Part shown: one piece after another, positions 18,094 to 52,831 of the stretch
How the letters are laid out: every line of letters starts with the position of its first letter
Numbering within the stretch: the first letter of the stretch is position 1
Origin: Antedon mediterranea
Taxonomy: Eukaryota > Echinodermata > Crinoidea > Comatulida > Antedonidae
Reading direction: 5' to 3'
DNA length: 64,000 nucleotides
Assembly: GCF_964355755.1 (NCBI RefSeq)
Contig: NC_092676.1
Location: 6,368,288-6,432,287 of the forward strand
Translations under genes and position numbers: made by a program
The notes under the pieces: model-generated
What the model was told of the DNA's origin: nothing
Database searches by the model: none
The model's input: the letters and a program-made list of their open reading frames with translations, nothing else

Positions 18094-19871
18094 TTATAAG
18101 CAGTTGGCTAAATCTGGTGGTTTGATAGGCCTATATATCCATTGTAGACCTTCGATAAATACCTTACCAATTACGATCAGCATGATAGAAACATTCAGCA
18201 TAATTAGAATAACGGGAGTTATCCTGTGTAGTAAACCAATGATGTCATCTTCATTGACTTTTTGATCCACGTTTACGATCGCCCCAATGGATAGATTGAC
18301 AACGATAAAGACAAGAGTCAACAATTGGAATCTCTGCTCTGACTTCTCTTTCATTGGTTGAAGGTACAAATGCAATACAATAAAGATGACAGTAAAAAAC
18401 AAAGAGTATGACAAACTTGAGGACACGTCATCTTTTAAGTTGACAATGAGTGCCAACAGAGCCTTGTTGTACAGCTCAAATGATTCCCAAAACCAAAATT
18501 TGTGCTTGTATTGTCCACAAAAGAACCTCACACCAATCATCCGTCCTTGATCCTGGTTTTCTTCATGCTGATCACTATGTACATATATACAGTATAGCAT
18601 AAGAACTATGACCAATGGGAAGCCAATGATGTATGTTAGAGAAATGTAAACAAGTGTTTTGTTGATTTGATATGTAGATCCATTATTTTGGTCCAGATCA
18701 ATCGAGTAGTCTGACGTTAGTACTGTTTTACTGACATTGCCATCTTCTGTAACGTTATATAAACGAATTGACCATGGTCCAACCGCCATGATGTCTGCAC
18801 ATGTGTTTGCATATGTAATGTAAAGAAGTAGCATTGACACAATGATACATTTGTCACGTGTGCGGCTCTCAGTTATTACCCCATGGCACGTATTCCACGT
18901 ATAAAACATAAGGTAAATGGCGGACATAGTTATTACTATGAAAACAGGTGTGCAAATAGCAACTTGAAGTGACGAATATGCATTCCAAGATTCAAGTAAA
19001 CATCTTGGGCTTAGCATACTAATATATCTTATGACGTCAAAATACTCAAGTATTCTACCAGCATATTCATAGTTTTTAGGCCAGTGAATATTAGTTACTT
19101 CTGACAGTATACCTAAAACCTGATAGAAATTAATAGCAATTTTTAAATATGTCACAAATGAATCTAGTTTTGTTTGTCGGTGGTGGTCGGTATTCCTTTG
19201 TTGTAATCTCCAAATGAGACAAATAACTCCAAACGTTACAAAAATAACACAAATGAATGTGATAACAGTCAGGAGAGGGCCTTGGCATTTGTGACATTCG
19301 TTAAATAACTGATAATATCCTTTTGAACATGCCGCACAAAGCCAACCAGTATATCCTTTAGCACAAGTGTCATTCAATTCCAATCCAATGCTACAACTAT
19401 TATTTCCCAGTGGACACAGGTGAATTTGTGGTAATGGACCTTTGTATACAGCATATTTTAGTTTGTTTGGATCGTCAATTGGAAATGTGTCGTTTTTTAA
19501 ATTAATTATAAATGTGTTGTACGCCGATAAACAAGGTTTTTTGTTTTGTTCTTCATCTACAATACAATCACCAGGGAAATCCCAGGACCACCAGTATCCA
19601 CGTGTTAGATTCAGATATCCTCCATTGCATGTAACGCCCTCCGGACAAGGCATGCATGGACCAAATCGATCAGTTCTATGGAACTTGTCGAGGCAATAAC
19701 AAGCATTTAGATTAGCAAATGTACTTGTATTGGTTCCAGATGGACACGTCTGGCAATCCGCGATAGACGCCGCTCCTGCATTATCTGAAAAACTTCCAAT
19801 AGGACATTGCTGACAGGTCTCTCTATAACCAATCCTTCCAATAACTCCGCGTTTATCTTGATAGAAACCAC
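18094..19871 (-). CDS. Copy B terminal exon: cysteine repeats and multi-pass membrane domain
   Basis: 1,778-bp exon after TTGCAG. It starts GFYQDKRGVIG, followed by GCC2/GCC3 motifs (CQQCPIGSFSDNAGA, CQTCPSGTNTS, CMPCPEGVTC) and a CAKGYTGWLCAACSKGYY segment. About eight hydrophobic stretches follow, the first near ITFICVIFVTFGVICLIW and the last near ITPVILIMLNVSIMLIV. The tail is short and ends PPDLANCL before TAA. Several N-x-S/T sites lie in the extracellular part and in one loop. A few conserved-looking positions (WESFELYNKALLA) resemble a module seen in other GCC2/GCC3 membrane proteins. Confidence 0.8.
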
Positions 19872-37000: not shown

Positions 37001-38222
37001 ATAAAGCGTGCATACCAAAAGCACAAGATAAATGGGAAAACCAACTTCAAAATTGTTTTATTGACTCGAATCTATGTTGGAAAAACAAAGTTAAGAGTAT
37101 GTTGCACATAAAAAGAGTGGCTTTCTTTAATTTTAAGTTGCTACATAAAATTTTACCAACTAGGTGTAAGCTAAAATTATGGAATTTGTCAAGCAGTAAT
37201 TATTGTGAATATTGTAATGAGGAGGTTGAAACCGAAAAGCATACGTTATTTACATGCAAAGAAGTAAAACATTGCTGGGTAAAATGTTGCGCTATGCTGA
37301 AAACATGTTTTGCATTTACTCAGGAAGTTACATGGAAGAAGATTGTACTTGGAAAATATGATGTCAAAATTAATGAAATATTTTCCATTTTAACTTTCTG
37401 TGTTTATAAAAGTAAAGTCAAACATAGACTAGGACTCTTCAAAAAATATCCATGGTTAATGTTCACTGTGAAGTTAGAAGGTATAATCAATTGTGAGTTG
37501 TTAATAAATAAAGAAAAGGCAAAAAAAATGTGGTCAGATATGGACCGTAACAATTTAGCAAGGTATAAAATTAACGTTTATAAAATTGATATTTAGGTAA
37601 AGTAAAATATAACTTTTTTTTTGATTGCCTGAAAGAGATAAAAAGAGTTATGAAATAAAGAATTCTGTGGTAAATTATACGTACATGGTTAAGAATTGAA
37701 AAACGTGTAAAGAGTGTATAACATAGAGGAAAATATTTTTTTTTTCTTCTTTCCTTATACTATTATATATAAAATACAATGGTAGGAGTGAGATATCAGA
37801 TGTACTGAAAGTTATTTAATGTCAATTATATTGTATTGTATCATTACATTACTCATGTGCAATGCATTTAATATATTACAGTATTAAAGTTTATGTTTGT
37901 ACTACTTTTTAAATATGTTATTGGTGAATAAGCTAAAACACATGGAATTAAGTTTTATTTATTTACTTTTTGTTTTACTAGATTTATGAAATTCAAATTT
38001 AAAAATCTAAACTTACAGAAACAGTGTATTTGCAGGAATTCCTACCGGCCATTCATTGAGTCCACGGTTTGTACAATTCACTGTTCGTCTTCTTTCTGTA
38101 CATTCACAAACTGCATTCACATTAGTATCATTACTACATGCAACCTCAACACATTTAGAAGAATCCACCAACAAACAAAACAAGAACAAAATCAACAAAT
38201 TGTGAGACATTATCTTCAACAT
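18094..38222 (-). CDS. LRR / GCC2-GCC3 / multi-pass membrane receptor, copy B (17 exons)
   Basis: Transcript order: 38017-38222, 35330-35401, 35146-35205, 34917-34985, 34060-34131, 29849-29917, 29083-29160, 28873-28944, 26579-26647, 26279-26350, 25946-26011, 24947-25144, 24649-24717, 24013-24084, 23812-23871, 20022-20206, 18094-19871. Nearly all introns are phase 2; the last one is phase 1. The exon lengths sum to 3,267 bases, or 1,088 residues. Domains in order: signal peptide, LRR N-terminal cap, about 14 LRRs mostly one per exon, two or three Cys-rich GCC2/GCC3 repeats, then about eight hydrophobic segments in the last exon. The expected product is a plasma-membrane protein with a large ectodomain. 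The WESFELYNKALLA and LYLQPM segments recall the multi-pass region found in other GCC2/GCC3 and TRP-like membrane proteins. Ligand and signalling route are unknown. Confidence 0.75.
20022..20206 (-). CDS. Copy B exon 16, first GCC2/GCC3-type cysteine repeat
   Basis: 185 bp between TTTACTAG and GTAATT. Contains ICVTENTDINIDIAEELL, then CNSETGTCSPCEKGTYK, then CTKCPPG. The CxxC-x-x-G-T-Y and C-x-x-CPPG pattern is that of ephrin-receptor-like GCC2/GCC3 repeats. The exon leaves one base, completed by exon 17 to Gly. Confidence 0.75.
20940..22449 (+). repeat. Unclassified interspersed element, copy R2
   Basis: Starts accatctaggtcgtgccc and ends at the palindromic junction with R3 (22436-22475). 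It lies in copy B intron 15 and contains the MITE at 21540-21942. Confidence 0.6.
21540..21942. mobile_element. MITE (403 bp, TA target site) inside R2
   Basis: The ends are AAGGCCCATTCACACT and its near-complement AGTGTAAATGGGCCTT, both followed inward by GATAA-type sequence, and both are flanked by TA. Sister copies of R lack it at the matching place. TA duplication fits a Tc1/mariner-type derivative. There is no open frame. Confidence 0.6.
22450..23643 (+). repeat. Unclassified interspersed element, copy R3
   Basis: Head-to-tail with R2 in copy B intron 15. Ends ttacgtaaatttatatatag. Same internal landmarks as R1 and R4. Confidence 0.65.
23812..23871 (-). CDS. Copy B exon 15, end of the LRR domain
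   Basis: 60 bp between TATTTAG and GTAAAC, reading YLDCGGLQSLPNGIEKHI. Its Cys and phase fit the junction to the following Cys-rich exon. Confidence 0.65.
24013..24084 (-). CDS. Copy B LRR exon 14
   Basis: 72 bp between TTTTCAG and GTATGT, reading YLFDNKLETIGENALSHM. Confidence 0.75.
24649..24717 (-). CDS. Copy B LRR exon 13
   Basis: 69 bp between TTTTCAG and GTAAGT, reading MLMGNSITSIQERAFSGT. Confidence 0.75.
24947..25144 (-). CDS. Copy B exon 12 with two to three LRRs
   Basis: 198 bp between TTTTTTCAG and GTAAGT. It reads QTIGNTLFSTDAYTF, then DLSWNNLTSLEDGRIPP, then IQLHKNNIQHISKNIF. This is the only multi-LRR exon. A cryptic acceptor-like TTTTAG lies inside it at about 25082, but the frame is open straight through, so I keep one exon. 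Confidence 0.75.
25946..26011 (-). CDS. Copy B LRR exon 11
   Basis: 66 bp between TATGTAG and GTGAGT, reading RLSNNKLTELPNIVNL. Confidence 0.75.
26279..26350 (-). CDS. Copy B LRR exon 10
   Basis: 72 bp between TTTCTAG and GTGAGT, reading SLKANKIRFIDKDAFVDV. Confidence 0.75.
26579..26647 (-). CDS. Copy B LRR exon 9
   Basis: 69 bp between TTCCTAG and GTAAGT, reading FLAGNSLQSIPAKAFQG. Confidence 0.75.
27120..27300 (-). mobile_element. tRNA-derived SINE (family c) with a near-intact cloverleaf
   Basis: Bases 27169-27242 (minus) fold as a tRNA: a 7-bp acceptor stem with wobbles, D stem GTCT/GGAC, anticodon stem TCTGC/GCAGG around loop ATATCAA (ATC at the anticodon), and a perfect T stem CCGAG/CTCGG. 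The same body follows as in the copy at 14.7 kb, so I call it a SINE head and not a working tRNA gene. Confidence 0.65.
27580..27770 (+). mobile_element. Possible Penelope-like or other RT-element C-terminal fragment
   Basis: The frame contains RRMKEAIWIRRRQNNINRDE, similar in form to the KEAI-x-IR-x6-NxNRDEG end of Penelope-like and related reverse-transcriptase proteins. It is truncated on both sides. A perfect 15-bp inverted repeat (27739-27753, 27765-27779) overlaps the end. Confidence 0.4.
28873..28944 (-). CDS. Copy B LRR exon 8
   Basis: 72 bp between TTAATAG and GTAGGT, reading FVQFNPNLEKISTGTFKN. Confidence 0.7.
29083..29160 (-). CDS. Copy B LRR exon 7
   Basis: 78 bp between TTTTTAG and GTAAGT, reading RIQYDNGIQVLCENAFAL. 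Two residues longer than the usual unit and the most divergent LRR of the set. Confidence 0.65.
29510..29835 (-). mobile_element. SINE family a, copy 2
   Basis: Minus-strand tRNA-like head (29710-29815) with an extended body (ctcctcccagattcaatcta, atggccatggtcttaacagt). It ends a few bases from copy B exon 29849-29917, in the intron beside its donor. Confidence 0.6.
29849..29917 (-). CDS. Copy B LRR exon 6
   Basis: 69 bp between TTTCCAG and GTAAGT, reading YISENHIHGIEPFTFVNV. Confidence 0.75.
30030..30545 (-). mobile_element. 5'-truncated LINE, reverse-transcriptase C-terminal remnant
   Basis: Read on the minus strand with a few frame breaks: FKSLGVVITRDLKWHNHI, then KAQQRLYFLRRLNSFGV, then KSLIESQLTF, then SGRRYRS and RTNRFHNSF. 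This order is the end of the reverse-transcriptase protein in L2/CR1-like non-LTR elements. It lies in copy B intron 5. Confidence 0.65.
30640..31060 (-). mobile_element. SINE family a, copy 3
   Basis: Same body and tRNA-like head as copy 2, followed by the tatgcatacatagcgccctc extension shared with copy 1. Confidence 0.6.
31420..32640 (+). repeat. Unclassified interspersed element, copy R4
   Basis: 5'-truncated relative to R2 and R3; ends acgtaaatttatatatagat. It contains the hairpin array at 31828-32092 and duplicated flanks around that array. Confidence 0.65.
31828..32092. repeat. Tandem array of palindromic hairpin units
   Basis: Three full units of about 66 bases and one degenerate unit. 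Each has arms CTCGAAAACAGAGACCCCC and its complement around a loop tatataacgtaatattgaga plus cgttttagt. Unit boundaries are near 31893, 31962 and 32030. Confidence 0.75.
32636..33060 (+). repeat. Second copy of the AGGCCTA-rich palindrome module
   Basis: Collinear with 290-747. The right palindrome arm is shortened (33000-33050), so the hairpin is weaker than in copy 1. Confidence 0.6.
33648..34015. repeat. (CTA)n/(TAG)n microsatellites in a duplicated ~237-bp unit
   Basis: The stretch ctaaatagggctaggcctcg appears at 33662 and 33894, each time followed by CTA runs that turn into TAG runs, which are self-complementary. The Leu-run and Ser-run frames are by-products. Confidence 0.75.
34060..34131 (-). 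CDS. Copy B LRR exon 5
   Basis: 72 bp between AAATAG and GTAAGT, reading NLDHNSISILENTTFKGS. Not found in copy A within the window. Confidence 0.75.
34917..34985 (-). CDS. Copy B LRR exon 4
   Basis: 69 bp between TTCCTAG and GTAAGT, reading YAMNNMLTEVSTCFNDL. Confidence 0.75.
35146..35205 (-). CDS. Copy B short LRR exon 3
   Basis: 60 bp between TTGATAG and GTAAGT, reading NLNNNVLTSLPRFPKTI. It is the counterpart of copy A exon 4544-4603, and only one 24+20 pair is present in this copy. Confidence 0.75.
35330..35401 (-). CDS. Copy B LRR exon 2
   Basis: 72 bp between TTTATAG and GTAAGA, reading YLSDNNLKKIDTNALLQL. Confidence 0.75.
35465..37800 (+). mobile_element. 5'-truncated L1/Tx1-type LINE, split by a MITE
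   Basis: Plus-strand reverse-transcriptase C-terminal region: LLWSGNKEKIKRNTLIQN, then ENGGIKMIDFNSMIESL and GWVKRLL. After the insertion come RVAFFNFKLLHKILPTRC and a CEYCNEEVETEKHTLFTC zinc-binding-like motif. One frameshift lies near 35890. The element sits in copy B intron 1, opposite to the gene, with A- and T-rich sequence near its 3' end. Confidence 0.7.
35959..36737. mobile_element. MITE (779 bp, TAA target site) inserted in the LINE
   Basis: The ends are GTCGCGTG and CACGCGAC, flanked by TAA (35956-35958, 36738-36740). LINE protein similarity resumes directly after it. Both internal flanks carry a direct repeat, gcatagtgataccggaccga followed by (GACAGACC)n. TAA duplication fits a PIF/Harbinger derivative. 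There is no transposase. Confidence 0.6.
38017..38222 (-). CDS. Copy B exon 1: signal peptide and LRR N-terminal cap
   Basis: Starts MLKIMSHNLLILFLFCLLVD (signal peptide). The cap holds cysteines in VACSN, VCECTE and VNCTN, then LNEWPVGIP. Donor GTAAGT follows. The sequence upstream is the duplicated flank shared with copy A. Confidence 0.8.
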
Positions 38223-44296: not shown

Positions 44297-45772
44297 ATGT
44301 ACTGTCAATGTATACTCGTGTTGCTCGTCCAGTGTTTGTTGGTCGATGCTTCCACAATTACTGTTGGTCCTCAGGACACTAATGCAATTGAAGGAGGCAA
44401 CGTAACTTTGTATTGCACTGTAGACGAATTAGGATGTAACACGGTCATTTGGCATCGATATCGAGAAATATCAGTTAAATACAGTGAAAACAGAACGATA
44501 GAATCAAGTTTAGATATGCCTGATCGTTATAAAATTACTGGTGATGATGCTGAGGGAACATACAACTTGCAAATTACAGGAGTTACCATAAACAACGAAG
44601 GAGGCGAAGAGTACCAGTGCACAATCATGAGTAGTGATGGTGTGTTAGTCGATGCAAGTGAGCCTGCAGCTGAACTTAATGTTTATGAGGAGCCAATGTC
44701 ACCAACATGTACTGTGCATTTAAACCCTATAGTAGCTGGCGATAATGTCGAATTTACCTGTTATTTTGCAAGTTCGATACCAAAAGTGGAAATGAATTTA
44801 ACGAGTAATTCCAACACACTGTTGAGTGGGATTGTTGATCCTGCATTCGTCAATCAAGGAAGTACCAGTTCAACCTCTTTCGCTGTTACAGCAGAATATG
44901 ACGGTGCTGTGTTAAGATGCACTGTTGATAACCAGATATTCAATACGCCTTCTGAATGTTCTGTTACATTAAATGTTAAACATAAACCTGTCGTTGAAAT
45001 CACACAAAATGGGACGCTGTCTGATGGAAACGCTTCGTTTAAGTGTGGAGCTGTTTCAAATCCTGATGCTACTCAATTCAAGTGGAGTCTGTGTCTTGGA
45101 GACACTGACATGGAATGTATTGATCCTGGTGAAGGAACACTGACACTTGAAACAAGGGGCTTGTCAAACGAATGCGCGGTTTTTGGTTCTATGACATATC
45201 ATGTTTTTAAAAATGAAGAAAAAGAATTACCAGTATACCTCATGATAATAGATGACAATTTGATCATCTATGACAATATGTCGGTCACTCCATGTTTACT
45301 AGAATGCTCAGTTATGAATGAGATTGGAGAAAGTAAAGATAATTTTACCATTGATAATACTGTGTGTGTAATGGCTGTTGAACCGACCACGATTTTGGCT
45401 GAAACCTCAAAACCTACGACATTGTCTCTGTTGTCATCGAGAGTATTTAGGCCTACCGATTCCGGTGATCAAATGTCAACTAAGAACCCTGTTTACTGTA
45501 GTTGTAATGGAAGTTTAGATGGTTGGGTTTACTTTATCATTGGATTTACTTGTGGTGTCCTTTGTCTTCTTGTATTTATAATGGTATTGACGCGTCTGAA
45601 ACACAAAACCAACAAAGATGCTAATAAACCAGCTCAAGAAAGGACGGAAACGCCAGAACCAGAATACGAAAATGTAAACAAAATATCTCCCAACAATGAC
45701 AATTACATGGACTTAACAACCAGTGACGTCACGGGCGCAAGTGCGTACATGGAATTGACACCGACATCATAA
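44297..45772 (+). CDS. Single-exon Ig-superfamily receptor with an ITAM-like tail
   Basis: 491 residues. Signal peptide about 1-19 (MYCQCILVLLVQCLLVDAST). Ig1 (about 20-130) is V-like with LYC, VIWH and EYQC. Ig2 (about 132-228) has FTCYF and LRCTV. Ig3 (about 230-365) has FKCGA, FKWSL and LECSV. A short Thr/Ser-rich stalk leads to one membrane segment (about 411-431, VYFIIGFTCGVLCLLVFIMV) and a basic cytoplasmic start. The tail carries Tyr457 (YENV, a YxN Grb2-type site), Tyr470 (YMDL) and Tyr484 (YMEL). The last two are YxxL motifs with ten residues between them, close to ITAM spacing. Many N-glycosylation sites. No intron is needed, which is unusual for this family. The frame is intact. 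Ligand unknown. Confidence 0.85.
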   Translation: MYCQCILVLLVQCLLVDASTITVGPQDTNAIEGGNVTLYCTVDELGCNTVIWHRYREISVKYSENRTIESSLDMPDRYKITGDDAEGTYNLQITGVTINNEGGEEYQCTIMSSDGVLVDASEPAAELNVYEEPMSPTCTVHLNPIVAGDNVEFTCYFASSIPKVEMNLTSNSNTLLSGIVDPAFVNQGSTSSTSFAVTAEYDGAVLRCTVDNQIFNTPSECSVTLNVKHKPVVEITQNGTLSDGNASFKCGAVSNPDATQFKWSLCLGDTDMECIDPGEGTLTLETRGLSNECAVFGSMTYHVFKNEEKELPVYLMIIDDNLIIYDNMSVTPCLLECSVMNEIGESKDNFTIDNTVCVMAVEPTTILAETSKPTTLSLLSSRVFRPTDSGDQMSTKNPVYCSCNGSLDGWVYFIIGFTCGVLCLLVFIMVLTRLKHKTNKDANKPAQERTETPEPEYENVNKISPNNDNYMDLTTSDVTGASAYMELTPTS

Positions 45773-47277: not shown

Positions 47278-47755
47278 ATGTGCTGTCAATTTATACTAGT
47301 GGTTGTCCAGTGTTGTATCTGTTTGTTGATAGATGCTTCTACAATTATTGTTGGTCCTCAAGACACTATTGCAATTGAAAGAGGAAACGTAACTTTGTAT
47401 TGCACCGTAGACCAACTTGGAGGTAACACGGTCATTTGGCATCGATATCAACAAACAGCAGTTAAATACAGTGAAAACAGAACGATAGAATCAAGGTTAG
47501 ATATGCCTGATCGTTATAAAATTACTGGTAATGATGCTGAAGGAACATACAACTTACAAATTACAGGAGTTACCGTAGACAACGAAGGAGGCCAAAAGTA
47601 CCAGTGCACAATCATGAGTAGTGATGGTTTGTTAGTCGATTCAAGTGAGCCTGCAGTTGAACTTAATGTTTACGAGAAGCCAATTTCACCAACATGTACT
47701 GTGGATTTAAACCCTACAGTAGCTAGGGAGGATGTCGAATTTACCTGTTATTTTC

Positions 47756-48243
47756 TGTCACGAACTCCTCTCACGTATGTTTCCGAGCGGTTGAAAATAC
47801 TTTAGGAACTCCCTTGTGACATAAAAGTATACACACAAAATCCACAAAGTTGTAAAATAACTCAAAAACAAAGCTTTAATTTCAATCAACTTCAACTTTT
47901 AACAATCCAGTAAGCACTTTAAACAACAGCTTCACAATAACTTTACAATATAATATCCAACCTCTAATCCAACAACCTTCTTCAAAATAAATGCTTCAAT
48001 CAAAATCCTTCTCCCCTTACAATTGTCATACTTCCCCTTATATACAATATGTTCATAACCTTCTAGATCATTCCTTATACTTCTCATTATTACATGATTA
48101 CAGTTTCTATTAATAGGACTTCTGGAATGTTCTTGATTGTTCTTATTAATTATACATGGTTTCTTAAATCAAAACATCTAATTCTAGAATGTTCATGTAA
48201 ATACTATGTTACTCTATATGTTAGGGAATGGTAATTTATTACA
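47756..48243 (-). repeat. 3' LTR of the retrotransposon
   Basis: 488 bp, same sequence as 50969-51456 as far as I can read, adjoining the polypurine tract. Confidence 0.9.
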
Positions 48244-48316
48244 CTCCCCCCTCTTTCTGAGCTCAAAACTCTTTCTTGGAGTTTTGAGGGGCAAGTATAC
48301 ACGGACGTGGCAAAAT

Positions 48317-50608
48317 TTAACCCACTCCTAGTCTATAAAACTTAATTACACCATAATAACATACAACATAATTATTAATGAAAACTAATAATGAACCAAC
48401 AATATTCATGTCAATTTGTCGGAATGGTTCACTAATTATTGGCATAGGAATCATCTGGGCCTTCAATTTAGTTTTATACTTTGAAGTTTTCTGACAAATC
48501 TCACAAGTGTTGCAATATTCAGTCACATCCTTTCTAATACCAGGCCAAAAGAATCTTTGCTTTATCCTATCTAATGTCTTTTCCCTACCTAAATGACCTG
48601 CCAAAGGAATATCATGTGAGACTTTCAATACACTATTACGGCAAGGGTATGGAACTACTAATTGCTCTATTGGTTCTGTCTGGTGTTTAGTGAAAACCAG
48701 CCTAAATAAAATTCCATCCTTACAGACTATATTTATAGTGTCATCATCCTTCTGTACTAACATCTGTTCTCGAAGTGAAATTAAAGTTCTATCCTTAACC
48801 TGATAATCCTTAATTTTATCTCTGCCAATATCTAAAATGTCTAATTCACTATCTTGGCTAGATTGAGCTTCCTTTGTTTTTGCAAACTCTTTCCTAACTT
48901 TTCGTTTCTCACTTCTGGTTTTATGAACTTTTTCCTTGGGAGGGTTGTCACTGAGTATTTGGCCATCTAAATGTCCAAATTCTTCTTGAAAATTAACCAC
49001 ATCATCTAACTGATGTGAAATAACCCCAGAAGCTTTTTCCGACTTTAATTCGTTTTCCTCTCTTAGTTTTTCTTTTCTAGCATGATCTCTAGTGGCAACA
49101 AAACTATGCCTATCATGATTCCTATCCCCCTTCCCTAATAAGTCTCTAAATTTAGGAAAGTCCCTACCAAGAATTACATCTCTTGGTAAATCGCTGCAAA
49201 CGCCAACCAACAAATTATGGTCTTCGTTATTAACCTTAATATTGACGAATGCAGTAGGATAGGCTTGGACATGGTCATGGACGCACCTGCATGTAATTTT
49301 AGCTTGCTCCGCGCGATTAATTTTCTTAGCCGCTACTAAATCAGAATGAACAAGTGTCATATCACATCCAGAGTCTATCAAAATTTCACAATCACATCCT
49401 TCAACTAGGCCTCTACAAATGTAAGGTGTACATGGTTTTGAAACAGTATCTGTTTTTGTCAACAAAAAGCCATCCTTACTTCGACAAAATCGTTCTATGT
49501 GGCCTACTTTTTTGCACCGTCTACAAACGAGAGGTTGTCTAGCATCAGATTGTGATTTATGAAAGTTATCAGGGGGATTATTATTACCCTTACTGTCAAC
49601 TTCAGGAGTGCCTTTCACTGTTTTCTCCTGGTTGTTTCTATTTTCGTGTTTTCTATTTTGAAACTTTTTCTCAAAATCGATACCTTTTCTAGCTTGAAAA
49701 TAATTATCTGCTAATTCCGCAGCATTTAATCCCGAATCTGGTTTATGTTCTTTAACCCAAATTTGTACCCCTGTGGGCATAATATCTATCAATTGCTCTA
49801 AAATAACAATTTCAGCTAAATCATCTTTGCTTTTATCAGCAGGCCTAGCCCACTTAGTAAATAAATCTTTTAACCTAACATACATTTCTCTATAACTTTC
49901 TTCACTTTTCTTTTTAATTGACCTAAACCTTTGCCTATATGTCTCTTCAGTTATGTCATACCTTTGTAATATTGCTTTCTTCACTATGTCGTACTGGTTA
50001 CTTTCTGTCACTGGTAGTGATGCATAGGCTGCTCTTGCTTTGCCTGTCAAATGAGGTATTAGTTTTACTACCCAGTGTTCTTTTCGCCACTCATAGGTGT
50101 TAGCAATACGTTCAAACGTAGTGAGATAATTTTCAATATCATCACTATCAGAAAGCTTTGCAATCTGAACTTCCTTCAATCTCATTATGTCTTTTAATCG
50201 TTTCTCCTCACTGTCCTTTTGCTTGTCCATTAACGCCATTACTAATGCTTGCTGTTTCTCCATATCTTCCCTACGTAAACGTTCTTGTCTTTCCATATCT
50301 TCTTTGCGTAAACGTTCTTGTTTCTCTATATCTTCCCGACGTCTTTCATTATCTTCTTGACGTGAACGTTCTTGTTGTTTCATCATCTGCTGCATCATAA
50401 TATTCTGCTGTTGCATTTGCTGCTGCATCAACAACAAAAAATCTTTTGAAAATGAGTCAGCCCCTGTAGGGTTATGTCCACTGGTTGGTCCAGACTCTTC
50501 TGCCTGTTGTTCAGGTTGAATTGATTGAACTGATTCTACATCCGAATCAGTTTCATCGCCGCCGCTGTATTCTCTACCGGATCTTGTTGTTGATTGTTTA
50601 TCAGCCAT
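48317..50608 (-). CDS. Gag-protease-integrase(N-terminal) polyprotein of the LTR element
   Basis: 763 residues. Acidic N-terminus, then a Gln/Glu/Arg-rich coiled coil (about 55-150), a capsid-like region with a SCAN-like helical part (around YDIVKKAILQRYDITEETY), a CCHC knuckle (CRRCKKVGHIERFC), an aspartic-protease motif (LIDSGCD), a charged linker, and the integrase HHCC zinc-binding domain (HDIPLAGH and CNTCEIC). It stops just as the integrase core should begin. Order Gag-protease-integrase without an intervening reverse transcriptase matches the integrase-first Gmr1-like group of deuterostomes; the deletion removed everything after. It would package RNA but needs enzymes in trans. Confidence 0.85.
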   Translation of the reverse strand: MADKQSTTRSGREYSGGDETDSDVESVQSIQPEQQAEESGPTSGHNPTGADSFSKDFLLLMQQQMQQQNIMMQQMMKQQERSRQEDNERRREDIEKQERLRKEDMERQERLRREDMEKQQALVMALMDKQKDSEEKRLKDIMRLKEVQIAKLSDSDDIENYLTTFERIANTYEWRKEHWVVKLIPHLTGKARAAYASLPVTESNQYDIVKKAILQRYDITEETYRQRFRSIKKKSEESYREMYVRLKDLFTKWARPADKSKDDLAEIVILEQLIDIMPTGVQIWVKEHKPDSGLNAAELADNYFQARKGIDFEKKFQNRKHENRNNQEKTVKGTPEVDSKGNNNPPDNFHKSQSDARQPLVCRRCKKVGHIERFCRSKDGFLLTKTDTVSKPCTPYICRGLVEGCDCEILIDSGCDMTLVHSDLVAAKKINRAEQAKITCRCVHDHVQAYPTAFVNIKVNNEDHNLLVGVCSDLPRDVILGRDFPKFRDLLGKGDRNHDRHSFVATRDHARKEKLREENELKSEKASGVISHQLDDVVNFQEEFGHLDGQILSDNPPKEKVHKTRSEKRKVRKEFAKTKEAQSSQDSELDILDIGRDKIKDYQVKDRTLISLREQMLVQKDDDTINIVCKDGILFRLVFTKHQTEPIEQLVVPYPCRNSVLKVSHDIPLAGHLGREKTLDRIKQRFFWPGIRKDVTEYCNTCEICQKTSKYKTKLKAQMIPMPIISEPFRQIDMNIVGSLLVFINNYVVCYYGVIKFYRLGVG

Positions 50609-50925
50609 TTTTTTTAATCTGGATGAGGGTCTTGTTACTAGTTAATCGTAGTTACCGAGACGTTCACAAGTCTACTGTTCCAAATAAATAATGTACTGTT
50701 CTTAAAACAATGTTTGTGTACTTACGATTAAACAAAACGTAGCACTACGGCTTCCGTATAATATCACAGTATCGTAAGTACCGCTTCCTCAAAATATCAA
50801 TAAAAGTACAGTTGATCCTAAAACAGCCACCAATCTATGGCAAAATACAGTAGATCAAACTGCTACCACAAAATATCACAACCGTAGATAAATACACAGT
50901 TAAGTCGAACAGTAGATCGAAATAA

Positions 50926-50963
50926 CCGCTGCCACCAAATTAGGCTGAACACCGCTGCCACCA
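50926..50963 (-). promoter_or_regulatory. Duplicated primer-binding site
   Basis: On the minus strand TGGTGGCAGCGG follows the 5' LTR after a short spacer (50952-50963), and the same 12 bases recur 26 bases further in (50926-50937). A PBS starting TGG pairs with a tRNA 3' CCA end. The tRNA identity is not established. Confidence 0.6.
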
Positions 50964-50968
50964 AATTA

Positions 50969-51456
50969 TGTCACGAACTCCTCTCACGTATGTTTCCGAG
51001 CGGTTGAAAATACTTTAGGAACTCCCTTGTGACATAAAAGTATACACACAAAATCCACAAAGTTGTAAAATAACTCAAAAACAAAGCTTTAATTTCAATC
51101 AACTTCAACTTTTAACAATCCAGTAAGCACTTTAAACAACAGCTTCACAATAACTTTACAATATAATATCCAACCTCTAATCCAACAACCTTCTTCAAAA
51201 TAAATGCTTCAATCAAAATCCTTCTCCCCTTACAATTGTCATACTTCCCCTTATATACAATATGTTCATAACCTTCTAGATCATTCCTTATACTTCTCAT
51301 TATTACATGATTACAGTTTCTATTAATAGGACTTCTGGAATGTTCTTGATTGTTCTTATTAATTATACATGGTTTCTTAAATCAAAACATCTAATTCTAG
51401 AATGTTCATGTAAATACTATGTTACTCTATATGTTAGGGAATGGTAATTTATTACA
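50969..51456 (-). repeat. 5' LTR of the retrotransposon
   Basis: 488 bp, adjoining the primer-binding region. The two-LTR identity indicates recent insertion. Confidence 0.9.
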
Positions 51457-52174
51457 TTTTCAAAGTTTTATACCAAAGGTGGAAATGAATTTAACGAGTA
51501 ATTCCAACACACTATTAAGTGGAATTGTTGATCCTATATTCATCAATCAAGGAAGTACCAGTTCAACCTCTTTCGCTGTTACAGCAGAAGATGACGGTGC
51601 TGTGTTAAGATGTACTGTTGACAACCAGATATTGAACATGCCTTATGAATGTTTTGTGACATTAAATGTTAAACATAAGCCTATCGTTAAAATCACTCAA
51701 AATGGAACGCTGTCTGATGGAAACTCTTCATTTACGTGTGGAGCTGTTGCAAATCCCGAGGCTACTCAATTTAAATGGAGTCTGTGTCTTGGAGACAATC
51801 ACATGGAATGTGTTGATCCAGGTGAAGGAACACTGAATCTTGAACAGGACGACTCAGAAGGCTTGCCGACTGAATATGAGGTTTTTGGTTCTAATGTATC
51901 TTGTCAAGTTTTAAAAAATGAAGAAACTGATTTACCAGTATACGTCATACTGATAGATGAAAATTTGAACATCCCTGGCAACATGACGGTGACGCCATGT
52001 GTACTAGAATGCTCAGTTATAAATGAGATTGGAGAAGGTAACGATAATTTTACAATTGACAATACTGTATGTGTAATGGCTATTGATGAACCGACAACGA
52101 TTGCGTCAACCAAATCAAATCCTACCACATTGTTGTCTACAACTATGTCACCATCAACAACTACTGTACGTGAT

Positions 52175-52605
52175 GTGGAAACTACCGGTACTCCGACAGT
52201 AACTACTGAAGAGGATGCCACGACAACAATAGCTACCGGAGAGTATGCAACGACAACGGTAGCTACCGGAAAGGATGCCACGACAACGGTAGCTATCGGA
52301 GAGGATGCCATGACAACGGTAGCTACCGGAGGGGATGCCACGACAACGGTAGCTACCGAAGAGGATGCCACGACACCGGTAGCTATCGGAGAGGATGCCA
52401 TGACAACGGTAGCTACCGGAGGGGATGCAACAAAAACGGTAGCTACTGGAGAGGATGCAACGACAACGGTAGCTACTGGAGAGGATGCCATGACAACGGT
52501 AGCTACCGGAGAGGATGCAACGACTACGGTAGCTACTGGAGATGAGGCCACGACAACTGTAGCTACCGGAGATGAGGCCACGCCAACTGTAGCTAGAGAG
52601 ACGAC
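52175..52605 (+). repeat. 30-bp coding minisatellite in the Ig2 stalk
   Basis: About 13 units encoding a ten-residue repeat of the form ATTTVATGED. Units keep the reading frame and differ by single bases. The Thr richness suggests an O-glycosylated stalk. The same place in the first Ig gene has no repeat. Confidence 0.85.
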
Positions 52606-52831
52606 TGTGGCAGAAATGACCACAAGTTCAGTTCCTAATGACAACAAGGCTGATGATACTGGAGGTGATAGTGGTTTAGAGAAAGGAGTTATCATTATCA
52701 TTGGCTTAGTTTCTGGTATAGTTGGTTTGATTCCATTTAGTGTTATATGTTATCAATTGAAACTCTTTTTAAAGAACAAAACCAAGAGAACTCCTTCTAT
52801 CGACGCATCTCCAGAAAATGGGACACAATAA

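What the first reader, a model, noticed from the sequence alone, without database searches (positions are those of the whole stretch)
44297..45772. Intronless Ig receptor with an ITAM-like tyrosine pair
One uninterrupted exon encodes signal peptide, three Ig domains, membrane segment and a tail with YENV, YMDL and YMEL. The two YxxL motifs have ten residues between them, close to the ITAM rule, and YENV fits a Grb2-type SH2 site. Single-exon multi-Ig receptors are rare because Ig domains usually have their own exons. Retroposition followed by local duplication is one explanation.
Basis: partly seen in the sequence, partly recalled or inferred. Interest (0 to 1): 0.7.

Follow-up and report, generated by a model that had tools for sequence, protein, structure and literature searches.

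The report
Intronless paired-receptor-like Ig gene family
The gene is a real single-exon membrane receptor with three immunoglobulin domains, and it belongs to a family with some 160 gene-sized open frames in this animal's genome, in which binding parts and signalling tails are combined in different ways, as in vertebrate activating and inhibitory immune receptors.

Summary
In detail: window 44297-45772 is one intact 491-codon ORF with three Ig domains, a membrane helix and YENV, YMDL, YMEL (ten residues between the last two). The larger result lies outside it. Five queries found 165 places of this family in the 354-Mb genome, 162 in open frames of at least 350 aa; 104 ORFs were read in full. 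Other Ig and SH2 exons listed there are mostly short. Nearby genes share the ectodomain (dS about 0.2) but not the tail: one has a different multi-tyrosine tail, and two end at a TAA that aligns with gene A's Tyr457 codon, the stretch matching A's other tyrosine motifs lying past that stop with its frame broken. In three arrays, tails or 3' halves are homogenised while Ig1 is far more divergent. Ten of 104 tails end in paired ITIM-like motifs (shuffled mean 2.0). Syk-like and SHP2-like SH2 exons exist. The ITAM-like tail is intact only in gene A, so its conservation is unproven. Closest known: echinoderm kirrelL (intronless), Botryllus FcoR, Hydractinia Alr, vertebrate paired receptors. Best reading: an activating member of a germline paired-receptor-like family. 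Species unnamed.

The parts
44297..45772 (+). Gene A: single-exon Ig receptor, 491 aa
44297..44353 (+). Signal peptide (residues 1-19; by hydropathy and predicted helix, no dedicated predictor used)
44354..44686 (+). Ig1, V-type (residues 20-130; borders approximate)
44687..44980 (+). Ig2 (residues 131-228)
44981..45376 (+). Ig3 (residues 229-360), two loops badly modelled
45377..45526 (+). Disordered stalk (residues 361-410)
45527..45601 (+). Transmembrane helix (residues 411-435)
45602..45769 (+). Rest of the cytoplasmic tail; by protein search found only here and in two broken copies at C7:6.328 and 6.331 Mb; a diverged DNA relative with a stop at the Tyr457 codon lies at the 3' ends of C and F
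45665..45676 (+). YENV, pYxN-type (Grb2-like) site, Tyr457
45704..45715 (+). YMDL, Tyr470, first half of ITAM-like pair
45746..45757 (+). YMEL, Tyr484, second half of ITAM-like pair
47278..47755 (+). Paralogue F, 5' part (signal, Ig1, start of Ig2), cut by an LTR retrotransposon
47756..51456 (.). LTR retrotransposon inside paralogue F: two 488-bp LTRs without a mismatch, target-site duplication TTTTC
51462..52831 (+). Paralogue F, 3' part (Ig2-Ig3, mucin-like repeat stalk, TM, short tail ending at a TAA that aligns with the Tyr457 codon of gene A)

Best explanation
Gene A is a single-chain receptor of a large germline-encoded, intronless Ig family that behaves like a set of paired receptors. 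Its V-C2-C2-like ectodomain would bind a surface ligand (self or microbial). On clustering, the tail tyrosines (Tyr470/Tyr484, plus Tyr457) would be phosphorylated by a Src-type kinase and recruit Syk-like tandem SH2 domains and a Grb2-type adaptor, giving an activating signal. Sister genes with almost the same ectodomain would give another signal (B, multi-tyrosine tail) or none (C and, before its interruption, F: the frame stops at the Tyr457 codon), and distant members with C-terminal ITIM-like pairs would recruit SHP2 and inhibit. Ectodomains and tails are recombined and homogenised between copies by duplication and gene conversion within the coding sequence. Shown here: family, single coding exon, shared ectodomain with differing tails, stop aligned with Tyr457, homogenised blocks, ITIM-like pairs above shuffles, presence of Syk-like and SHP2-like SH2 exons. 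Inferred: phosphorylation, ligand, activating sign, immune or self-recognition role, gene conversion as the cause of the blocks, and which state of the tail is ancestral (not determined).
For: Family: 165 places from five queries (merged), 162 in frames of 350 aa or more (153 of these without a stop inside the match), median frame 476 aa, against median 122 aa for the 150 scored I-set matches and 79 aa for 53 SH2 matches. All 50 of 50 members scanned match Pfam Ig_3. Paired pattern: A against B and C aligns at 88.0% and 88.7% from about the ATG to codon 365, with ectodomain dS 0.22 and 0.18, then dS 1.29 and saturated over the next 29 codons. C and F end at a TAA aligned with A's TAC for Tyr457 (33 bases A-C at 90.9%; 134 bases A-F at 68.7%). 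Copy E joins an Ig1 nearest to F (95.9%; to A 87.7%) to the tail of A (90.8%; no match in F). Arrays: median dS 1.1 for Ig1 against 0.07-0.14 for Ig2 to tail (10 genes); 0.137 for TM and tail against 0.5-1.3 for Ig1 to stalk (14 genes); 0.22 for tail against 0.67-1.0 for the Ig domains (18 genes); tail dN/dS 0.08-0.15. Mean identity changes at the Ig1/Ig2 border or at the TM segment and falls to 0.48-0.58 in the 150 bases after the stop. ITIM-like pair: 10 of 104 tails, shuffled mean 1.98, highest 6; YA/YS form 9 against 0.06, highest 1. Partners: an SH2 exon at C6:544.8-545.2 kb best matches SYK (3e-37), with a second SH2 match 2.2 kb away; an SH2 exon at C3:14.100 Mb best matches PTPN11/SHP2 (1e-38).
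Against: No RNA, protein or polymorphism data. The ITAM-like tail is intact in one gene only; family-wide strict ITAM-like pairs are only slightly above shuffles (6 of 95 against 2.2), the looser form is not (9 against 6.2, sd 2.4), single ITIM-like motifs are not (30 against 29.0) and YxN motifs are fewer than shuffled (18 against 26.0). The ITIM-pair pattern was chosen after looking at the tails. The spacing of ten fits only the broad ITAM rule. The best structural matches are as much adhesion molecules (nectin-like, Rst/SYG-1, DIP) as immune receptors (SIRP, CD22), with tied Z-scores. Positive selection on Ig1 is not shown: ratio of medians 0.31 in two arrays; 1.11 in the third, but there 45 of 91 pairs are saturated. 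In the C3:11.87 array the upstream 150 bases are also alike (0.79, 15 of 18 genes), more than Ig1, so blocks there are not confined to coding sequence.
Confidence: 0.5

Rival explanations
1. A cell-adhesion or cell-fusion family like echinoderm KirrelL: members bind each other or partner members, and tail tyrosines dock adaptors for the cytoskeleton rather than immune signalling.
For: kirrelL lacks introns in all echinoderms examined and is needed for fusion of skeletogenic cells (PMC8903837, passages). Fold matches include Rst D1-D2 (Z 15.8, 25% identity), SYG-1 and nectin-like proteins.
Against: Array organisation (groups of 34 and 19 neighbouring places on C3), homogenised tails with divergent Ig1 and ITIM-like pairs look more like a recognition repertoire than a developmental adhesion set.
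Confidence: 0.25
2. The tail is a general adaptor-docking platform (Grb2, PLC-gamma, PI3K or SHP2) and the ITAM spacing is coincidence.
For: YENV is a pYxN-type site; YENV-x9-YMDL also fits the broad spacing; ITAM-like pairs are at most slightly above shuffles over the family.
Against: Both YMxL motifs at this spacing arise in only 31 of 20,000 shuffles of that tail; a Syk-like SH2 exon is present.
Confidence: 0.3
3. Gene A is a recent retrogene that then duplicated locally.
For: No intron in the coding sequence; retrotransposition has been proposed for kirrelL (PMC8903837, passage).
Against: The 104 members read are single ORFs too, and array neighbours reach saturation at synonymous sites in Ig1, so the single-exon state is old; the close copy D shares about 3 kb including flanks.
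Confidence: 0.05
4. Gene A is a decaying copy without function, like its neighbours D, E and F.
For: D and E carry frame-changing deletions and F is split by a retrotransposon; A against D has dN/dS 0.63.
Against: A is intact over 491 codons, and its ectodomain against intact B and C has dN/dS 0.42 and 0.52.
Confidence: 0.1

Closest known systems
Echinoderm KirrelL (PMC8903837; passages seen)
   Same: Intronless single-exon Ig transmembrane gene; authors raise retrotransposition as its origin
   Different: In the passages seen it is one developmental gene; here 165 places, many in arrays, with ITAM-like and ITIM-like tails.
Botryllus fester co-receptors, FcoR (PMC12065747; passages seen)
   Same: Large invertebrate family (53 loci) of type I Ig receptors with ITIM, hemITAM or core tyrosine motifs
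   Different: Has a sushi domain; alternative splicing swaps ITIM and hemITAM at some loci; here the genes have one coding exon
Hydractinia Alr genes (mentioned in the PMC12065747 passages; primary paper not seen)
   Same: Invertebrate allorecognition genes with ITAM/ITIM motifs
   Different: Intron structure and domain order not compared here
Oyster CgIgIT2 (PMC11999971; passage seen)
   Same: Invertebrate Ig receptor with an ITAM
   Different: Five Ig domains; described as one protein
Vertebrate paired receptors (SIRP, Siglec, CEACAM; search listing with starts of abstracts; tail details and gene structure recalled)
   Same: Near-identical ectodomains with opposing tails, gene conversion (Siglec-11/16), ITIM pairs; SIRP-alpha is among the fold matches (Z 15.8)
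   Different: Multi-exon genes (recalled); 18% identity to SIRP-alpha in the fold alignment; no orthology shown

Membership tests
ITAM-bearing receptor | YxxL/I-x(6-12)-YxxL/I in the cytoplasmic tail (broad rule, recalled) | tested here: met
   YMDL-x10-YMEL, residues 470-487
ITAM-bearing receptor | Classic spacing of 6-8 residues (recalled) | tested here: not met
   Spacing is ten
ITAM-bearing receptor | Conservation of both tyrosines in intact relatives | tested here: inconclusive
   Kept in A and D (D broken); E is broken and off frame before YMEL; C and F stop at the Tyr457 codon; other species could not be searched
ITAM-bearing receptor | Doubly phosphorylated motif binds Syk/ZAP-70 tandem SH2 | not testable with these tools
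   Only the presence of a Syk-like SH2 exon was shown
Paired receptors | Near-identical ectodomains joined to different tails in neighbouring genes | tested here: met
Paired receptors | One partner activating, the other inhibitory | tested here: inconclusive
   Local partners: ITAM-like; multi-tyrosine with two YxN sites and no ITIM-like match; no tyrosine motif. ITIM-like pairs occur only in distant members
Echinoderm KirrelL | Intronless Ig transmembrane gene | tested here: met
   literature
Echinoderm KirrelL | Orthology to sea urchin kirrelL | not testable with these tools
   No kirrelL sequence available; the 2017 paper is not held
Echinoderm KirrelL | Expression in skeletogenic cells | not testable with these tools
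   No expression data
Botryllus FcoR | V-type Ig, sushi, two C2 Ig, TM, tyrosine tail | tested here: not met
   Gene A: six Pfam families at E up to 1, none sushi; none among the 25 of 35 families shown for 50 members
SIRP/nectin/Kirrel fold group | Three-domain V-C-C ectodomain | tested here: met
   Matches to Necl-4, nectin-1 and SIRP-alpha within residues 16-355, Z 15-16, rmsd 3.3-8.4; fold only, not membership
Recent retrogene | Copy lacks the flanks of its source | tested here: not met
   Nearest copy shares flanks over about 3 kb

The most novel reading that the evidence does not exclude
This animal keeps a germline repertoire of some 160 single-exon paired Ig receptors in which the coding sequence acts as a set of exchangeable blocks: Ig1 diversifies while Ig2-to-tail, or TM-to-tail, is overwritten between neighbours; ectodomains are moved onto activating, inhibitory or silent tails by gene conversion within one exon; and a tail can be switched off by a single stop codon at its first signalling tyrosine. 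That would be an intron-free way of doing what tunicate and vertebrate families do with exons.
Probability: 0.4. Interest if true: 0.85.

Novelty: new variant of a known kind. Interest (0 to 1): 0.62.

Why it matters
Invertebrate ITAM/ITIM receptor families are known in tunicates and cnidarians. A larger single-exon family would show that paired activating/inhibitory Ig recognition can be built and rebuilt without exon shuffling or splicing. It also gives a clean system for measuring gene conversion, since whole receptors stand in tandem in units of about 1.7 kb.

Tried and rejected
Recent retroposition of gene A: rejected, because the closest copy shares its flanks. A chance ORF: rejected, because 104 related ORFs were read. 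ITAM as a family trait: not supported. A tail donor elsewhere in the genome: none found with the 88-residue TM-tail query (7 matches, 4 local, the other 3 with E 0.28 or more). 'Unrelated' tails for A and C/F: my first reading, withdrawn after one search showed a colinear diverged match through TM and tail. More ITIM-pair modules by a 47-residue query: 2 matches from 3 candidates, too short a query to be informative. Naming the organism: COX1 gave no match, innexin 2 weak matches, connexin none, but that search rang in no control either. Eleven contigs hold about 99% of the bases (contig lengths; C4 only bounded) and window GC is 30-36%; a crinoid echinoderm is my guess and nothing here proves the phylum. 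Paper searches listed no description of this family in the open-licence library; listings are capped and subscription journals are mostly missing.

Rows dropped before counts: one search had one ORF running off its piece (L018) and one cut by a piece edge (L033), leaving 95; one search added 9 of 11 (two ran off their pieces). The 104 include the 357-aa 3' ORF of broken copy D. One search was fed 200 match rows; later rows for places already pasted were left out by hand; its places include broken copies D and E and both halves of F. The C3:18.73 array was compared with 14 of its 15 listed genes. Signal and TM calls are by hydropathy: 5 of 95 have a weak signal score and 6 of 104 a tail under 20 residues. 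The tree used 78 rows after thinning the arrays, is a 'quick' tree with many long branches, and its tail labels came from regular expressions that missed the C3:18.70 array.

Full report
The window lies at G000:C7:6368288-6432287, in a 354-Mb animal genome of 18 contigs. The reported ORF is real and intact: 491 codons from ATG to TAA, no intron in the coding sequence. Pfam finds Ig domains. An AlphaFold model on a 50-sequence family alignment gives three strand-rich regions, a 411-435 helix, and a disordered stalk and tail (mean pLDDT 75.5, Ig1-Ig2 mostly above 90). High fold matches are three-domain V-C-C receptors: Necl-4 Z 16.2 (270 residues, rmsd 5.3), SIRP-alpha Z 15.8 (275, rmsd 8.4), nectin-1 Z 15.2 (273, rmsd 3.3), and Rst D1-D2 Z 15.8 (201, rmsd 2.8). 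Rows this close are ties, so the fold does not choose between adhesion and immune families.

The family. A search of the genome with this protein gave 55 matches at E up to 0.001. Searches with a C3 member, two C11 members and a second C7 member gave 96, 70, 81 and 69 at E up to 1e-6. Merged, they are 165 places on 9 contigs, 162 of them in open frames of at least 350 aa as the tool reports them, 9 of these with a stop inside the match. Only the best candidates are scored, so members are missed; on the other hand at least the broken local copies D and E are counted. In the loci fetched, 104 ORFs could be read in full. Of 50 members scanned, 50 match Pfam Ig_3 and 45 V-set. Seven cysteines are invariant over these 50, whose identity to gene A is 17-24% apart from its two close local paralogues. 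Introns are usual in this genome: the 150 scored I-set matches (of 1312 candidates; many in one titin-like stretch of C2) lie in frames with median 122 aa, 133 of 150 under 350 aa, and 53 SH2 matches in frames with median 79 aa, 49 of 53 under 350 aa, against 476 aa here. Many members stand in tandem: 34 places between C3:18.701 and 18.785 Mb, 19 at 18.823-18.914 Mb, 19 at 11.846-11.904 Mb. Introns in untranslated regions cannot be judged.

The local cluster shares a binding part and not the tail. Gene A, its copy D (one-base deletion; 95.6% over about 3 kb with flanks) and its copy E (three frame-changing deletions) share the ITAM-like tail. Gene B (L013, minus strand) has a 178-residue tail with ten tyrosines and two YxN sites, without detected similarity to A's TM-tail. 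Gene C (L013, plus strand) has a 30-residue tail without a tyrosine motif; F ends likewise. A, B and C are 88-89% identical from about the ATG to the end of Ig3, with dS near 0.2; over the next 29 codons dS is 1.29 (A-B) or saturated (A-C), while B and C share a little more of the stalk. E is a visible chimera: its Ig1 and 137 bases of its 5' flank are nearest to F (95.9% and 94.9%), its tail is A's (90.8%) and finds no match in F.

A stop at the first tyrosine. Beyond that stop the stretch that matches A's YMDL and YMEL region has frame-breaking gaps in C and F. So activating-type and silent members may differ by one stop codon at the first signalling tyrosine. Whether the stop or the long tail is ancestral is not determined.

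The arrays show block-wise evolution in other proportions. In the C3:18.70 array (10 genes) Ig1 has median dS 1.1 while Ig2 through tail have 0.07-0.14; mean nucleotide identity goes from 0.65 to 0.92 between codons 83 and 133 and is 0.48 in the 150 bases after the stop. In the C3:18.73 array (14 genes) only TM and tail are homogenised (dS 0.137; Ig1 to stalk 0.5-1.3, with 16 to 45 of 91 pairs saturated). In the C3:11.87 array (18 genes) the tail has dS 0.22 against 0.67-1.0 in the Ig domains; there the upstream flank is also alike (0.79). Low dS in one block of a gene and high dS in the next is not expected from protein-level selection alone; recombination or gene conversion between copies is the simplest cause, but no formal recombination test was run. 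Tail dN/dS is 0.08-0.15, so the tails are under constraint. Positive selection on Ig1 is not shown (0.31 in two arrays; 1.11 in the third, half of whose pairs are saturated).

Signalling motifs. Ten of 104 tails (10 of 51 outside C3, 0 of 53 on C3) carry two ITIM-like motifs 20-27 residues apart, ending 6-11 residues from the C-terminus, often VEGLxYA[DE]LDF/L ... xYAx[ILV]; shuffles give a mean of 1.98 (highest 6), and for the YA/YS form 0.06 (highest 1) against 9 seen. The pattern was chosen after seeing the tails. On the ectodomain tree these ten need 6 changes, at least 4 forced by starred branches; shuffled labels need 9.6 and none of 500 as few, so the module is partly inherited and partly scattered (a quick tree). 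It resembles SIRP/Siglec tails as I recall them. Seven of 104 have three or more YxxP sites, several as YAKP repeats (shuffled mean 2.16, highest 7). Against a motif reading: single ITIM-like motifs are at chance (30 of 95 against 29.0), YxN is below shuffles (18 against 26.0), the loose ITAM-like pair is near chance (9 against 6.2, sd 2.4) and the strict one only slightly above (6 against 2.2, sd 1.4). The genome holds a Syk-like SH2 exon (PDB best hit SYK, 3e-37) and a SHP2-like one (PTPN11, 1e-38); one exon of each was compared, and the kinase and phosphatase exons were not looked for.

Literature. Passages of PMC8903837 say that kirrelL lacks introns in all echinoderms examined, is a fusion protein of skeletogenic cells, and may stem from retrotransposition. 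Passages of PMC12065747 describe 53 Botryllus FcoR loci with ITIM and hemITAM, and mention such motifs on Hydractinia alr genes. A passage of PMC11999971 describes oyster CgIgIT2 with an ITAM. Passages of PMC11310086 and PMC12828049 gave nothing on this family. Thus an intronless Ig receptor and an invertebrate Ig receptor with ITAM/ITIM are each known; a single-exon family of this size with block-wise exchange did not appear in the listings of the ten searches made.

Verdict. Observation confirmed; interpretation partly supported. The gene is most likely an activating-type member of a germline repertoire, but the activating sign rests on a motif intact in one gene. The firmer and more interesting result is the family and its block-wise evolution.

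Noticed in passing
window 47756-51456: LTR retrotransposon with 488-bp LTRs (0 mismatches) and a 5-bp target duplication, minus-strand ORF 48317-50608 with SCAN, aspartyl protease and integrase zinc-binding Pfam matches; it splits paralogue F in Ig2 and must be very recent.
   Followed up: partly
L013 5616-5648 and window 52831 region: The TAA of genes C and F aligns with the Tyr457 codon of gene A, and the DNA past it is a decayed or alternative version of A's tyrosine tail.
   Followed up: partly
window 52106-52655: Thirteen overlapping 190-base copies at 30-base spacing, coding GDATTTVAT-like repeats, a mucin-like stalk in paralogue F; a similar stalk is in L013 3890-5623.
   Followed up: partly
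L031, L049, L061, L065, L066, L067, L100, L101, L102, L107: C-terminal pair of ITIM-like motifs, LxYA[DE]LDL-like and xYAx[ILV]-like, 20-27 residues apart, on C2, C6, C7 and C11.
   Followed up: partly
L055, L056, L061, L105, L106, L107: Repeated YAKP-type (YxxP) motifs in long tails, possible Crk/Nck-type sites (binding preference recalled).
   Followed up: no
C7:885673-889281 (L109) and C11:2110747-2113089: Unusually long single frames: 1202 aa (ORF found in full) and 1056 aa (listed only, two family matches in one frame); perhaps fused or extended members.
   Followed up: no
window 18094-19653 (-): 519-aa ORF with a DUF7630 match just over its cut-off; several stretches look hydrophobic by eye.
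   Followed up: no
window 37099-37596 (+): 165-aa ORF that looks like the zinc-binding end of a reverse transcriptase (recalled resemblance, not searched).
   Followed up: no
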